Shown: piece after piece, positions 23,823-28,331 of the stretch
How the letters are laid out: every line of letters begins with the position of its first letter
How positions within the stretch are numbered: the stretch's first letter is position 1
From: Brevibacillus choshinensis
GTDB lineage: Bacteria > Bacillota > Bacilli > Brevibacillales > Brevibacillaceae
Length of the DNA: 64,000 nucleotides
NCBI RefSeq assembly: GCF_016811915.1
Contig: NZ_CP069127.1
Location: forward strand, 1,890,001 to 1,954,000
Reading direction: 5' to 3'
Made by a program: the position numbers and the translations under genes
Notes under the pieces: model-generated
Database searches by the model: none
Told to the model about the DNA's origin: nothing
Seen by the model: the letters and a program-made list of their open reading frames with translations, nothing else

Positions 23823-24005
23823 TCAGCACCATTCCAGAGCAATAGCGACATATGCCAGGGCCAGAATTCCGAGAATGACGACATCAAAGGAGGTTGGGAG
23901 GATGATGGTGCGGATGAATTGAAAGGTAATGAGAGGAATGAGCACCTGTTTGAATCCATACTTGATTCGCAAATAGGTGGGATTGTACTTCCAACGGAAA
24001 TTCAT
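23823..24005 (-). CDS. Small membrane protein, 60 residues
   Basis: A 60-residue protein with a basic N-terminal part (NFRWKYNPTYLRIKYGFKQ) and one or two hydrophobic helices (LIPLITFQFIRTIIL and VVILGILALAYVAIALEW). ATG 24005 has GAGGTGA five bases upstream on the minus strand, better than GTG 24014. The amphipathic pattern and the good ribosome binding site argue that it is real. I do not recognise the family. It is divergent from the PP2C gene, with about 170 bases between starts, and convergent with the spoVID cluster. Confidence 0.7.
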   Translation of the reverse strand: MNFRWKYNPTYLRIKYGFKQVLIPLITFQFIRTIILPTSFDVVILGILALAYVAIALEWC

Positions 24006-24105
24006 CAAAATCACCTCATTCCAGCATATGCGCCAAATGGTGGGACAGTGCTAGATTGGCAAAAGATGATAGCAGTAGTTCGGGACTTTATTTGTCCGGG
24101 ATCAG

Positions 24106-24131
24106 GTTTGAATCGTCAGGCAAACGGGAAC
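24106..24131 (+). promoter_or_regulatory. Possible sigma-B-type promoter of the PP2C gene
   Basis: GTTTGA (24106-24111) and GGGAAC (24126-24131) are separated by 14 bases. They fit the sigma-B pattern GTTTAA-N12-15-GGGTAT at eight or nine of twelve positions. The spacing equals that of the stronger candidate upstream of the STAS gene at 27618. Predicted start near 24138, about 40 bases before the ATG. Confidence 0.35.
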
Positions 24132-24177: not shown

Positions 24178-26328
24178 ATGTTAGGGGAATCCTTGCTTTT
24201 CGTGCTGGGAGTATGCGCAGGTGCGTTCATTTTGGCACGCGTAAGTGGACTCTCTTCCGTAAAGCGCTGGTATCATGCTTCTGTTTTGCAAGGACTGGGT
24301 TTAATCACATGGGGGGCAGGGAAATTTGTGACACTGTTTCCCTCTCTGGAGCTGCAACAAGCTTTTCTGCCCTCCTTCGTGATGACGTATACGTTTTTTC
24401 TGTTGTCCATTCATGCGCTTCAGCACTCGACTTTGACCTATGAATCCTGGAAAACCACTTTTGATACAGTGGCTTTGATCATCACGAGCATGACGATGGT
24501 CATCCTGCATGAAATGGGTTACTGCAATTCCGAACCGGAGAATATTCCGTACATGCTGCCTCTGCTTGGCGGGATGTTTGTCGTCATTCCCGCTATTACG
24601 CTTCTCGCAGAAAGCGGGCAGGGGGAAGCTCCAAAAGCAGCAGAGAGGAGCAGAAGGGCGCTGGTGGCACTCGCCACGATCTTGTTTGCAGTCTGCTCGA
24701 TTCTGCAACCGTTCGTTCCCCAGGCTGCAATTCTGGCGCTGGGCGTGATCTTCCTGGCTGTTTTGCTGCGGGCGCATTTCGGATGGGAGAATCAAGGGCT
24801 ATTGCCTGCTGATCAGGCAGATTATCGCTATCTTTTTCAGAAGCTGACTTTTTGCAAAAGAGATGTCATCATGGTGCAAGTCATGCTGCTGCTGTGTGTG
24901 GCTCTGCTCATCGGCGCTCCCGACCTTCCTGCTTACGGGAGGATGGGGTTGTGGGTAGCGATCGCGTTTGGCTGCATCCGCGTGTATTTGACGATACGGG
25001 ACAATCGTACGCAAATGAATCGGACGTATTTTTCTGCCGCAAGACTCGAACAAAAATACGAAGAGCAATTGGCTTTGACGAGAAAATCCAATGAACAACT
25101 GAGTCATGTGCTGGAGCTCAAGCAAAACTATGAGCACGTGCTGATTGCGAGCAATGAACAAAGCTTGCGGGAGGTAACCTATGAAACCTTGCAGCAAGTG
25201 ATAGAAGAGCTGGTAGAAACGTGGTTCACAAAAATGGATTCCCTCGTCTATATGAGACTCTCACTGGAATCGCAAAATCAGACAGTCTACTATCAAACCG
25301 AGAGAGGCGAGAAAAACCGTCTTGATGTGCTGCATCAGGTGTCGGAGCAGATCGTCGCGAATGAAAAGCTGGATTCTGCACTGACCCCCAGGTACGTGAG
25401 TCTTGAGGCCTATACGAGTGCAGAGGACATCCAGCAAAAAGAGTTGGAACAATCTTTATTCCAATTGCTTCTGATCAACGTGAGGGGGCTTGCGCAGCGC
25501 TGCCTGCAGCAGCATCAAGCATTGGAGCTGCGGTTTATGGAATCGGAAATGGAGCTGGCCAGACAGATTCAATCCACGCTGGTGCCGAAAGAGCAGCTGA
25601 CGCTGGAGAGATTGCGTGCGCGAGCCGTTTATGCACCTTTTACCTATGTTGGTGGGGATTATGTTGATTACATTCGTGTCGATGAACGGTATACTTGTTT
25701 TATTGTAGCGGATGTATCCGGTCACGGACTGCCTGCGAGTCTGCTGGCTTCGGGAATTCGCAGTGCGGTCAGAGCCGTGCTGCAAAAGAGCTGGTCGCCA
25801 GATGAAGTGCTGACGAGACTCAATCAGCTGCTGTACGACGACCTGTCCAAAACCAGATCCTTTGTAACGATGCTGGTCGCCCTGTATGATGCAGACGAGC
25901 ATGCCCTGCTGCTGAGTCGCGCCGGTCATCCGAGGCCGATCTATATGTCGGCAACGCAAAAGATGGTTTTGCCTTGTGTCGGAGGGGTTGGTCTAGGGCT
26001 TTTGCCTGATAGCACGTACCCGCTCGAAAAAGTACCATTGTTAGAAGAGGGCTTTCTGCTTTTATATACAGATGGACTCATGGAGTCCGGAAGAAAAGAA
26101 CTAGTTCGCGATACTCATTCATGGCTTCATGGCTTTTCCCTGTTGATGGACGAGCATGGGAATGTACTGGAGCATTTGATGGATGGGGTGGAATCGTACA
26201 TATGGGAAGTGACTCGCCAAGGACGACAGACAGATGATTTGTCCGTCTTGATCCTGTATTTTCAATCCTATTCGGCACAGCCGTTTCCGGACATCGATGT
26301 GTCTACGGCACCGGCTGCCCGTTTATGA
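24178..26328 (+). CDS. Membrane-anchored PP2C (SpoIIE/RsbU-type) phosphatase
   Basis: A 716-residue protein. Residues 1-275 hold about eight or nine hydrophobic segments; about 285-330 is a coiled-coil-like linker; 330-450 may be a divergent GAF-like domain; 452-700 is a PP2C SpoIIE domain. The RsbU-type linker MELARQIQSTLVP (458-470) leads into GGDYVDY (492-498), ADVSGHGLPASLLASGIR (511-528), RAGHPRP (581-587), YTDGLMESG (630-638) and TDDLSVLIL (685-693), so all metal-binding aspartates are present. Such enzymes dephosphorylate STAS anti-anti-sigma factors. ATG 24178 is chosen because AAAGGTGAT is close upstream. Not SpoIIE itself by length and N-terminus. Confidence 0.88.
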   Translation: MLGESLLFVLGVCAGAFILARVSGLSSVKRWYHASVLQGLGLITWGAGKFVTLFPSLELQQAFLPSFVMTYTFFLLSIHALQHSTLTYESWKTTFDTVALIITSMTMVILHEMGYCNSEPENIPYMLPLLGGMFVVIPAITLLAESGQGEAPKAAERSRRALVALATILFAVCSILQPFVPQAAILALGVIFLAVLLRAHFGWENQGLLPADQADYRYLFQKLTFCKRDVIMVQVMLLLCVALLIGAPDLPAYGRMGLWVAIAFGCIRVYLTIRDNRTQMNRTYFSAARLEQKYEEQLALTRKSNEQLSHVLELKQNYEHVLIASNEQSLREVTYETLQQVIEELVETWFTKMDSLVYMRLSLESQNQTVYYQTERGEKNRLDVLHQVSEQIVANEKLDSALTPRYVSLEAYTSAEDIQQKELEQSLFQLLLINVRGLAQRCLQQHQALELRFMESEMELARQIQSTLVPKEQLTLERLRARAVYAPFTYVGGDYVDYIRVDERYTCFIVADVSGHGLPASLLASGIRSAVRAVLQKSWSPDEVLTRLNQLLYDDLSKTRSFVTMLVALYDADEHALLLSRAGHPRPIYMSATQKMVLPCVGGVGLGLLPDSTYPLEKVPLLEEGFLLLYTDGLMESGRKELVRDTHSWLHGFSLLMDEHGNVLEHLMDGVESYIWEVTRQGRQTDDLSVLILYFQSYSAQPFPDIDVSTAPAARL

Positions 26329-26353
26329 TTGCCCTGCGAAAGGAGGATGACAT

Positions 26354-27592
26354 GTGATTTTGTGTGAGGGTTGTCCTGACAATCCCGCTTGCGATAATTG
26401 CCTGATCGAGCTTCGATGTGGGGGGTCGGCTCAAAAGGTAATCCCTCCACGGCCAGTCCGGATCACGAACCTTTCTACATCGGAAGAATGCCAGGCCCAG
26501 CTTGTCACAGTCAGTCGGACAGCCATTGGCCTGTTCAGTTACGAGAAACCGCTGCACGGACGTATGGAGGTTGAGCTCGCCGGCGATTTTCGGATCATCG
26601 GGGACGGACTGCACGGGATCCATGGCGTTCCGTATTATGTGATCGATATTGAGAAAGTTTTGCGTCGGGATGAAGTGCTCGAACGTCTGCTGCTTGAAGA
26701 GTTTCACAACTGGCATATGAGCGGCGAGCTCGACCCGTCCGAACTTTTGGTGGATCTGAAAGAAAGAGATGATGAACGAGGGCGCCTGATCAGGCAGGAG
26801 CTGCAGAAGCTCTCCATCCTGCGGCAGATCGGGACCATTTTTCTGTATTTGTTTGATGAAGGCAATCTGAGGCCGCTGGGAACATCGCGAGCGGAACGCG
26901 ACATTGAGAGGGAAATGTATCGCCTGATCACGGATGGCAGGAGCTCCCTGGATTCTTTTCGCGAGCAGCTCATTTCCGAAGACGGCCGAAAGCTGTTTGA
27001 AATGTACGCTTCTCCCTTGCCTGATCAAACGTTCGGGATCGCACTGATCGATGTGACGGAAGCGATTGCGGAAGAGAGGAAGCGTCAGCGAAGGGAATGG
27101 GAAATCTACAAGGATATTTTGGGAGTGGTTACCCATAACAAGCTGCTCCTGCTAAATGACGAGGAGCTGTTTTTTCTGCTCCGCAACGGTCACAAATCGT
27201 TTGCCATGGACGTGCGTGCTCCAAAGGATCTGGCACAGCTGCGGCGGGCGTGCAAGCGTGCCCTAGAGCCGCTCGGATTGTCCGACAAGCGCATCCTGCA
27301 ATTTCTGGTCGCTGTCAATGAAGCGGCTTCGAACACCTTAAAGCATGGCGATGGCGGGACGATCACGGTGTACGTGTCGAACGAGCAGCACATGTGCAGA
27401 GCGGTCATTCATGATGAGGGCCAAGGCATCCTGCTGGAAGAGCTGCCGAGAGCGACTCTGCAGCAAGGGTATTCGACTCGTCATTCCCTCGGCGCAGGGT
27501 TTCATGTCATGCTGCAATATTGTGATCGGGTTTATCTGGGCAGCTCTCTCGCAGGGACCAAGCTCATCCTCGAATGCGAGGCCACTTCCTAG
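26354..27592 (+). CDS. Anti-sigma-factor-type ATPase (serine kinase) with N-terminal cysteine cluster
   Basis: A 412-residue multidomain protein. Residues 4-22 carry five cysteines spaced C-x2-C-x5-C-x2-C-x5-C. Residues about 36-105 are beta-rich and weakly resemble PilZ; about 150-240 look like a PAS domain ending in ALIDVTEAIAEE; about 285-410 are a GHKL/HATPase domain with N-box E323 and N327, G1 DEGQG at 354-358 and a GYSTRHSLGAGF lid. This is the RsbW/SpoIIAB kinase class rather than a histidine kinase, as no H-box is seen. GTG 26354 follows AAAGGAGGATGA. It sits 25 bases after the PP2C gene and upstream of a STAS gene. The expected target is that STAS protein. Confidence 0.82.
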   Translation: MILCEGCPDNPACDNCLIELRCGGSAQKVIPPRPVRITNLSTSEECQAQLVTVSRTAIGLFSYEKPLHGRMEVELAGDFRIIGDGLHGIHGVPYYVIDIEKVLRRDEVLERLLLEEFHNWHMSGELDPSELLVDLKERDDERGRLIRQELQKLSILRQIGTIFLYLFDEGNLRPLGTSRAERDIEREMYRLITDGRSSLDSFREQLISEDGRKLFEMYASPLPDQTFGIALIDVTEAIAEERKRQRREWEIYKDILGVVTHNKLLLLNDEELFFLLRNGHKSFAMDVRAPKDLAQLRRACKRALEPLGLSDKRILQFLVAVNEAASNTLKHGDGGTITVYVSNEQHMCRAVIHDEGQGILLEELPRATLQQGYSTRHSLGAGFHVMLQYCDRVYLGSSLAGTKLILECEATS

Positions 27593-27617
27593 AGAATGTG
27601 CTGTCATTTACGAAAAT

Positions 27618-27643
27618 GTTTGTACTCGTGTGAAAAAGGGTAT
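27618..27643 (+). promoter_or_regulatory. Sigma-B-type promoter candidate of the STAS gene
   Basis: GTTTGT (27618-27623), a 14-base spacer, then GGGTAT (27638-27643). This matches the B. subtilis sigma-B consensus at ten of twelve positions including the full -10. Predicted start near 27650, about 48 bases before the ATG. Whether this organism has a sigma-B-like factor is unknown from the window. Confidence 0.55.
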
Positions 27644-27698
27644 CTAGTAATTGAGGGAGTACGGTGGGGACCTATACATCAATGAGAGGAGTTTATAC

Positions 27699-28049
27699 AT
27701 GGACTATCGGGCGACAGAAACAAATGGGCAAGCCACGCTATTTTTTGCCGGGGAACTGGATATGGCTGTGGGAGACCGGGTAGGGGAGTTGCTCCAGCAA
27801 TATGGAGGACGCAACGAATCCGTTACTGTCGATTTCCAGGGCGTCTCTTTTGTTGACTCATCGGGGATAGGCAGCCTGTTTTTTACGACGAAAGAACTGC
27901 TGGCACTAGGCAAGCAAGTAGAAATTGTGAATGTGCGAGAAGAGATCTTGGATATCTTGAGTGTGCTCGGCTTTACGGAGGCTTTGGGAATCTCCGTGGG
28001 GAAAGCCGTTGAAACTGGGTTTGACGCGAAACCGACTGATTGTATATAA
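27699..28049 (+). CDS. STAS-domain anti-anti-sigma factor
   Basis: A 116-residue single STAS domain of the SpoIIAA/RsbV type: FAGELDMAVGD near the N terminus, then VDFQGVSFVDSSGIGSLFF with the phosphorylatable serines at 54-55 in DSSG. ATG 27699 is chosen over TTG 27651 because GAGAGGAG precedes it and the family starts here. In partner switching the unphosphorylated form binds the ATPase and frees the sigma factor; the upstream PP2C and ATPase genes are its likely enzyme partners. No sigma factor gene is adjacent. Confidence 0.93.
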   Translation: MDYRATETNGQATLFFAGELDMAVGDRVGELLQQYGGRNESVTVDFQGVSFVDSSGIGSLFFTTKELLALGKQVEIVNVREEILDILSVLGFTEALGISVGKAVETGFDAKPTDCI

Positions 28050-28056: not shown

Positions 28057-28331
28057 GAAATGTCCATGATAATTCCATATGTAAGCAACGTGGAGTGGGA
28101 AGAGTAAGTCAGGAACCCTTGTCAGAGAGGAGAATCAATAGCTGCGAGATTCTCTAAGGTGACGAATGACTGAAGGTCGCCCAGGAGTTGTTCCGGTGAG
28201 ACGTACGTTCAGCCGGAAACGGTTCGCAACCGTTATCGTGTTTGAGGGAATACGCATCGTCATCGACCGTGCGTGTTAACAAAGGTGGTACCGCGAAAAT
28301 ATCCTTTCGTCCTTTGGATGAAGGGTTTTTT
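28057..28331 (+). ncRNA. T-box leader of valS (tRNA-Val sensing)
   Basis: The leader has the AGTA element (28103-28106), the stem I arm GAGAATC / GATTCTC, the T-box sequence AAAGGTGGTACCGCG (28281-28295) and a terminator with arms CCTTTCGTCC / GGATGAAGGG followed by a T-run (28303-28331). GTC at 28176-28178, after GAAG and before the stem I 3' strand, is the likely specifier codon for valine. Uncharged tRNA-Val would stabilise the antiterminator and allow valS transcription. Confidence 0.93.

What the first reader, a model, noticed from the sequence alone, without database searches (positions are those of the whole stretch)
24178..28049. Complete partner-switching module inserted between the spoVID cluster and valS
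Three same-strand genes encode a multi-pass membrane PP2C phosphatase, a GHKL ATPase of the RsbW/SpoIIAB class and a single-domain STAS protein. All key residues are present: PP2C metal aspartates, N- and G-boxes, DSSG. The B. subtilis region has no such genes here. No sigma factor is adjacent, so the output may be a distant sigma factor or a non-sigma target. This is the strongest candidate for an undescribed signalling system in the window.
Basis: partly seen in the sequence, partly recalled or inferred. Interest (0 to 1): 0.78.

Follow-up and report, generated by a model that had tools for sequence, protein, structure and literature searches.

The report
Stress-driven partner switch of Brevibacillus
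Three neighbouring genes in these soil bacteria encode a kinase, a phosphatase and the small protein they act on, apparently switched on by general-stress promoters; the kinase carries extra sensor domains, so it looks like a new version of a known bacterial signalling switch whose target is still unknown.

Summary
The trio is real: PP2C phosphatase (24178-26328), GHKL kinase (26354-27592), STAS protein (27699-28049), with active-site residues intact. It is conserved in 26/26 Brevibacillus genomes and most of the family, nearly always beside valS, never next to a sigma factor.

Two corrections. The GHKL protein is not RsbW/SpoIIAB class: it is far below those models' cut-offs, and its ATPase domain groups with kinases of FapA (DUF342)-linked modules, some beside flagellar genes. 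Its N-terminus holds an invariant CxxCPx4CxxC motif and a domain modelled as a PilZ fold, without the c-di-GMP-binding motifs.

New: sigma-B-type promoters (GTTT-N16-GGGWA) precede the PP2C gene (24106) and the STAS gene (27618). They are conserved in 25/25 and 26/26 genus genomes, although one clade has lost the PP2C membrane domain. So SigB probably drives the module, rather than the module freeing a neighbouring sigma factor.

Best reading: a SigB-induced partner-switching module with a sensory kinase (Cys motif, PilZ-like domain) and an output outside the locus, most likely non-sigma and perhaps linked to motility. Output and SigB dependence are unproven. New variant of a known kind; interest 0.52.

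The parts
24106..24131 (+). P1, sigma-B-type promoter GTTTGA-N14-GGGAAC, 46 nt before the PP2C start
   Evidence: Conserved in 25/25 genus genomes read; chance expectation for the motif 0.83 per window
24178..26328 (+). PP2C (SpoIIE-type) phosphatase with N-terminal membrane part (about 7 TM segments)
   Evidence: Pfam SpoIIE 134.7 bits; metal motifs; TM estimate
25684..26259 (+). PP2C catalytic domain (SpoIIE Pfam match)
26354..27592 (+). GHKL kinase, 412 aa, with N-terminal Cys motif, PilZ-like domain, PAS-like middle (inferred) and C-terminal ATPase domain
26363..26401 (+). CxxCPx4CxxC motif (residues 4-16), possible metal or Fe-S site
   Evidence: Invariant in 21 sequences
26432..26719 (+). 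PilZ-fold domain (residues about 27-122), c-di-GMP motifs absent
   Evidence: Model; fold matches; motifs
27221..27568 (+). HATPase_c_2 kinase domain (residues 290-405)
   Evidence: tree
27618..27643 (+). P2, sigma-B-type promoter GTTTGT-N14-GGGTAT, 55 nt before the STAS start
   Evidence: Conserved in 26/26 genus genomes
27699..28049 (+). STAS-only protein, 116 aa; predicted phosphorylation site S54 at 27858-27860
   Evidence: Pfam STAS 47.2 bits; D53-S54 invariant

Best explanation
The three genes form one partner-switching module made under SigB control. SHOWN BY SEQUENCE: the three proteins and their catalytic residues; conservation and common loss of the trio; two conserved sigma-B-type promoters, one before the operon and one before the STAS gene; a SigB and RsbW in the genome; a GHKL protein with an N-terminal Cys motif and, by modelling from two sequences, a PilZ-fold domain. 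INFERRED: the GHKL kinase phosphorylates the STAS protein on S54; the PP2C removes the phosphate in response to a membrane or cytoplasmic signal; unphosphorylated STAS binds the kinase and makes it let go of another partner, or itself acts on one. The Cys motif (metal or redox) and the PilZ-like domain tune the kinase. SigB raises the whole module and gives the STAS protein an extra dose, which would favour unphosphorylated STAS during stress. The output lies outside the locus and is most likely not a sigma factor: the nearest relatives sit in operons with FapA-like proteins, and some beside flagellar genes, so a motility or surface-lifestyle effector is the best guess.
For: Trio in 26/26 genus genomes and most family genomes; all three absent together in G026, G028, G029 and G030. 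Catalytic motifs conserved. GTTT-N16-GGGWA occurs 3 times in the window (0.83 expected), two of them 46 and 55 nt before trio starts; conserved in 25/25 (P1) and 26/26 (P2) genus genomes, and P1 in five family loci outside the genus. P1 keeps its distance to the first RBS where the PP2C membrane part is deleted. Published SigB consensus GTTTAA-N15(+/-2)-GGGTAT (PMC9847131). SigB and RsbW in the genome above equivalog cut-offs. PilZ fold. GHKL tree places the kinase with FapA-linked systems; FapA and flagellar neighbours of the relatives.
Against: No FapA, EAL or flagellar gene lies at the Brevibacillus locus, so the output is inferred from relatives only. The promoter motif was not enriched before genes in an 800-kb sample of the genome (5 against 3-5 for controls), and none was found before the sigB operon, so SigB recognition is not independently validated. 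P1 was not found in G031, G032 and G033. The PilZ model rests on two sequences (mean pLDDT 61.5), and a profile comparison found no PilZ similarity. The STAS tree is weakly supported with long branches. G037 keeps PP2C and STAS at valS but not the kinase gene there.
Confidence: 0.55

Rival explanations
1. The module is a feedback arm of SigB itself. SigB induces it, and the kinase or the PP2C then acts on RsbT, RsbV or RsbW to prolong or end the stress response, a role that RsbX and the stressosome play in B. subtilis.
For: SigB-type promoters on the trio. The Brevibacillus sigB operon has rsbT, rsbU, rsbV, rsbW and sigB, but no rsbR, rsbS or rsbX beside it, so feedback parts seem to be missing. 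The kinase's G2 box resembles that of RsbT.
Against: The PP2C and STAS are distant from RsbU and RsbV (27% identity over the PP2C domain; separate places in the STAS tree). The nearest relatives are FapA-linked and lie in no sigB operon. rsbR and rsbS elsewhere in the genome were not excluded.
Confidence: 0.2
2. The GHKL protein is an orphan anti-sigma factor that holds a sigma factor encoded elsewhere (SigD, the RpoD-like 316-aa sigma, or SigB) and releases it when unphosphorylated STAS binds.
For: All partner-switch parts are present. The genome has several sigma factors without a linked GHKL regulator, such as SigD and the 316-aa protein.
Against: The kinase lies outside the RsbW/SpoIIAB clade and below their models. 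No sigma gene is linked in any relative's valS locus. Its nearest relatives lie with FapA.
Confidence: 0.13
3. The unphosphorylated STAS protein is itself the output and acts on an unknown target, as proposed for SypA, RbaV and HmpV; the GHKL protein only sets its phosphorylation state.
For: STAS is the most conserved part (93% identity to B. centrosporus against 83% for the kinase and 61% for the PP2C) and has its own promoter. Precedents in PMC8256260.
Against: Strong conservation also fits binding to both kinase and phosphatase. No target is linked.
Confidence: 0.1

Closest known systems
RsbU-RsbV-RsbW and SpoIIE-SpoIIAA-SpoIIAB of Bacillus
   Same: PP2C phosphatase, STAS protein with serine directly after Asp at the site, GHKL kinase
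   Different: No linked sigma factor; kinase outside the RsbW/SpoIIAB clade with about 285 extra N-terminal residues; the module appears to be a SigB target rather than its regulator
SiaA-SiaB-SiaC-SiaD of Pseudomonas aeruginosa (PMC7647112)
   Same: PP2C phosphatase, kinase and antagonist-like protein working as a partner switch without a sigma factor
   Different: SiaC is phosphorylated on Thr68; the output is the linked diguanylate cyclase SiaD, and no cyclase is linked here; the window's PP2C scores only 25.4 bits on the SiaA model (cut-off 700)
FapA (DUF342)-linked GHKL-PP2C-STAS modules of other Bacilli (G157, G120, G106, G037; seen here, no description found)
   Same: Full-length kinase with the same CxxCPx4CxxC motif and same length, plus PP2C, STAS; ATPase domains form one clade (97/96)
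   Different: Those clusters contain a FapA protein and two lie beside flagellar genes; the Brevibacillus trio lacks FapA and sits at valS
STAS-only switches with non-sigma or unknown output: SypE-SypA, BtrU-BtrV-BtrW, RbaV-RbaW, HmpU-HmpV-HmpW (PMC8256260)
   Same: Partner-switch parts whose output is not, or not shown to be, a sigma factor; roles in biofilm, secretion or motility
   Different: Other lineages and architectures; no SigB-type promoter control reported in the section read

Membership tests
RsbW/SpoIIAB anti-sigma kinases | Score above the equivalog model cut-off | tested here: not met
   spIIAB 31.1 bits (cut-off 135); RsbW PRK04069 11.8 bits (cut-off 145)
RsbW/SpoIIAB anti-sigma kinases | Groups with RsbW and SpoIIAB in a tree of the ATPase domain | tested here: not met
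   SpoIIAB and two RsbW form their own clade, 99/98, on a branch of length 3.07
RsbW/SpoIIAB anti-sigma kinases | Binds a sigma factor | not testable with these tools
   No linked sigma gene at the valS loci read; binding needs experiment
GHKL (Bergerat-fold) serine kinases | N-box with Glu and Asn, G1 and G2 boxes | tested here: met
   NEAASN, DEGQGI, GYSTRHSLGAGF; boxes present in all 18 aligned
SpoIIE/RsbU-type PP2C phosphatases | Pfam SpoIIE above cut-off and metal-binding Asp residues | tested here: met
   134.7 bits against 25; GGD, AD..GHG, TDG and DD present in all 16
STAS-only anti-sigma-factor antagonists | STAS domain and serine directly after Asp at the phosphorylation site | tested here: met
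   STAS 47.2 bits; D53 and S54 invariant in 17 sequences
STAS-only anti-sigma-factor antagonists | NCBIfam TIGR00377 ant_ant_sig curated cut-off | tested here: not met
   44.1 bits against cut-off 53.45
PilZ domains | PilZ fold | tested here: met
   By predicted model only: Foldseek best E 1.8e-3, ranks 1-37 PilZ proteins except one uncharacterised; VIA Z up to 11.1 over 90 residues, rmsd 2.0; best unrelated Z 7.1
PilZ domains | Pfam PilZ or profile-profile match | tested here: inconclusive
   No Pfam PilZ hit in 18 members; hhalign probability 0.3% with shallow profiles
PilZ c-di-GMP receptors | RxxxR and (D/N)xSxxG binding motifs | tested here: not met
   Window has KVIPPRPVR and VSRTAIG; relatives (A/G)IS(R/P)xG
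SigB regulon | Promoter GTTTAA-N15(+/-2)-GGGTAT or close variant | tested here: met
   P1 GTTTGA-N14-GGGAAC (9 of 12 consensus positions), P2 GTTTGT-N14-GGGTAT (10 of 12), conserved genus-wide; consensus from PMC9847131
SigB regulon | SigB encoded in the genome | tested here: met
   TIGR02941 355.8 bits against 315
SigB regulon | Expression depends on SigB | not testable with these tools
   Needs a sigB mutant
FapA-linked partner-switch modules | Kinase belongs to their clade | tested here: met
   97/96 clade with the L064a, L118 and L119 kinases
FapA-linked partner-switch modules | fapA in the operon | tested here: not met
   No FapA gene at the valS locus; the genome's one fapA lies beside sigD
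SiaABCD | Linked diguanylate cyclase as output | tested here: not met
   No cyclase among the neighbours

The most novel reading that the evidence does not exclude
A partner-switch kinase directly gated by a PilZ-like receptor and a metal or redox Cys cluster, induced by SigB, through which Brevibacillus couples the general stress response to a FapA- or flagellum-type effector without any sigma factor as output.
Probability: 0.25. Interest if true: 0.72.

Novelty: new variant of a known kind. Interest (0 to 1): 0.52.

Why it matters
Partner switching is best known as the machinery that releases SigB or SigF; here a second, family-wide partner switch appears to lie downstream of SigB. Its kinase combines a Cys motif, a PilZ-like domain and a GHKL kinase, an arrangement I found no description of, and it links to a wider, apparently undescribed group of FapA-associated switches in Bacilli. 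It is directly testable with reporter fusions, purified proteins and deletions in laboratory Brevibacillus.

Tried and rejected
Linked sigma factor: none at the valS loci. A Pfam or PDB-sequence match for the GHKL N-terminus: none. PilZ by profile comparison: no signal with shallow profiles. Full-length AlphaFold model of the GHKL: unusable, mean pLDDT 40.3; only the N-terminal piece was informative. Homologues from genome contigs: one (B. centrosporus); viral contigs: none. Promoter enrichment in 800 kb of the genome: none above controls, so the SigB claim rests on conservation at this locus. SigB-type promoter before the sigB operon or ctsR: not seen. A third motif match at 24299 lies inside the PP2C gene and is taken as chance. 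Papers on partner switching in Brevibacillus: none in the library; FapA with STAS: nothing relevant. Recent horizontal insertion: rejected, since the trio is present through most of the family at the same place. RsbT kinship from the shared G2 box: not claimed, because RsbT sits on a very long branch in the tree.
Full report
WHAT IS THERE. The window comes from a Brevibacillus chromosome (6.17 Mb; the kinase is 83% identical to that of B. centrosporus). Between the ysxE-like genes downstream of spoVID and the T-box leader of valS (28082-28317) lie three same-strand genes: a PP2C phosphatase (24178-26328), a GHKL protein (26354-27592) and a STAS-only protein. Pfam supports all three.

ARE THE PARTS INTACT. 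The metal-binding motifs of the PP2C (GGDY, ADVSGHG, TDG, DD), the kinase N-box NEAASN and G-boxes, and the phosphorylation-site residues D53-S54 of the STAS protein are invariant or nearly so in 16-18 family members. That the phosphorylated residue is the first serine after Asp rests on my knowledge of SpoIIAA S58 and RsbV S56; PMC11418112 names S56 as the RsbV phosphorylation site.

IS IT ONE UNIT. All 26 genus genomes carry the kinase, and the PP2C and STAS genes flank it in every genus locus read. 35 of 39 genomes of the order have a kinase match. Four genomes of one sister genus lack all three genes while the flanking genes are in place: common loss (or common absence), as expected of one functional unit. 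One genome (G037) keeps PP2C and STAS at valS but not the kinase gene there; it holds a related Cys-motif kinase elsewhere. Outgroup genomes G157 and G120 have no trio at valS, so the valS location is a feature of this family.

THE KINASE IS NOT RsbW OR SpoIIAB. It scores far below the curated cut-offs, and its ATPase domain lies outside the clade of SpoIIAB and RsbW (99/98). It groups (97/96) with full-length relatives in G157, G120 and G037, and more broadly with the ATPase domains of a large set of modules that contain FapA (DUF342 with Jag_N), PP2C and STAS. In G157 and G106 such a module lies beside genes that read as flagellin, csrA, fliW, flgL and flgK (names from sequence, by my recognition). 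The G2 box GYSTx3LGxG also recalls RsbT, but RsbT sits on a very long branch and this is not used as evidence of kinship.

N-TERMINAL SENSORS. Residues 4-16 form CxxCPx4CxxC, invariant in 21 sequences, including relatives only about 30% identical. From the alignment I suspected a PilZ domain in residues 27-122. A profile comparison did not support this. A model of residues 1-127, made from two sequences (mean pLDDT 61.5; 72-86 in blocks over residues 31-80), matches PilZ structures almost exclusively: Foldseek ranks 1-37 are PilZ proteins or complexes with one, apart from the uncharacterised Lpg0364, and about 30 such entries have Z 7.9-11.1 against 7.1 or less for unrelated folds. The c-di-GMP motifs RxxxR and (D/N)xSxxG are absent, so ligand binding is open. 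The middle (about 130-270) looks PAS-like to the eye; one member of 18 gave a weak PAS_4 hit (E 0.093).

PROMOTERS. The region upstream of the PP2C gene contains GTTTGA-N14-GGGAAC at 24106-24131, and the gap between the kinase and STAS genes contains GTTTGT-N14-GGGTAT at 27618-27643. The window has 3 matches to GTTT-N16-GGGWA against 0.83 expected, and two of them are these. P1 is present in 25 of 25 genus genomes in which the stretch was read (G015 was not covered), P2 in 26 of 26, two of these with a spacer shorter by one. P1 also occurs in G027, G034, G035, G036 and G037, but was not found in G031, G032 and G033. In nine genomes of the genus the PP2C frame is only about 407 aa, without the membrane part (one, L028, read in full), yet P1 keeps its distance from the first RBS. 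The published SigB consensus is GTTTAA-N15(+/-2)-GGGTAT, with a spacer of 14 reported as apparently optimal (PMC9847131). The genome has a SigB above the equivalog cut-off and an RsbW. Caveat: the motif was not enriched before genes in an 800-kb sample and I found none before the sigB operon, so recognition by SigB is a strong inference, not a demonstration.

HOW IT PROBABLY WORKS. Inferred steps: SigB induces the module; the kinase phosphorylates STAS at S54; the PP2C reverses it; STAS binding makes the kinase switch partners; the Cys motif and PilZ-like domain modulate this. The extra promoter before STAS would tilt the balance towards unphosphorylated STAS under stress. The output is not encoded at the locus. 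Relatives point to FapA or flagellar partners, and some of the wider group to EAL proteins; feedback on SigB, release of a remote sigma factor, and STAS itself as output are the rivals.

COMPARISON. By its parts it should work chemically like RsbU-V-W and SpoIIE-AA-AB, and like SiaABCD or the SypA/RbaV group in lacking a linked sigma factor (PMC7647112, PMC8256260). It fails the tests for RsbW/SpoIIAB membership and lacks the FapA gene of its nearest relatives. I therefore call it a new variant of a known kind.

Noticed in passing
G000:C1 near 2426950 (L073 1602-1728), outside the window: sigF of the sequenced genome is interrupted by what reads as cloning-vector polylinker plus an exact FRT site, that is an FLP/FRT scar: the strain looks like an engineered sporulation mutant. 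No FRT site in the window.
   Followed up: yes
L056, L124, L125, L126, L127, L128, L130: GHKL-PP2C-STAS-FapA modules share a cluster with a FolE-like protein, a short-chain dehydrogenase, an alpha/beta hydrolase and, in some, an acyl carrier protein and an AMP ligase: looks like a small-molecule (perhaps pterin) signal pathway.
   Followed up: no
L122, L124, L127, L128, L132: EAL-like proteins next to FapA-linked partner-switch modules; EAL confirmed by Pfam only in L122.
   Followed up: partly
G000:C1 193286-193996 (L081): An extra RpoD-like sigma factor of 316 aa upstream of an hslO-like gene.
   Followed up: partly
L068 4794-7830: The sigB operon reads rsbT-rsbU-rsbV-rsbW-sigB without rsbR, rsbS or rsbX beside it and without a visible SigB-type promoter.
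   Followed up: partly
window 23823-24014 (- strand): A 63-aa hydrophobic protein on the opposite strand between the ysxE-like gene and the PP2C gene, 74% identical in G037 and 56% in G157; unknown function.
   Followed up: no
L122 8803-10881: A GHKL kinase fused to an HD_5 domain in a FapA-linked module.
   Followed up: no
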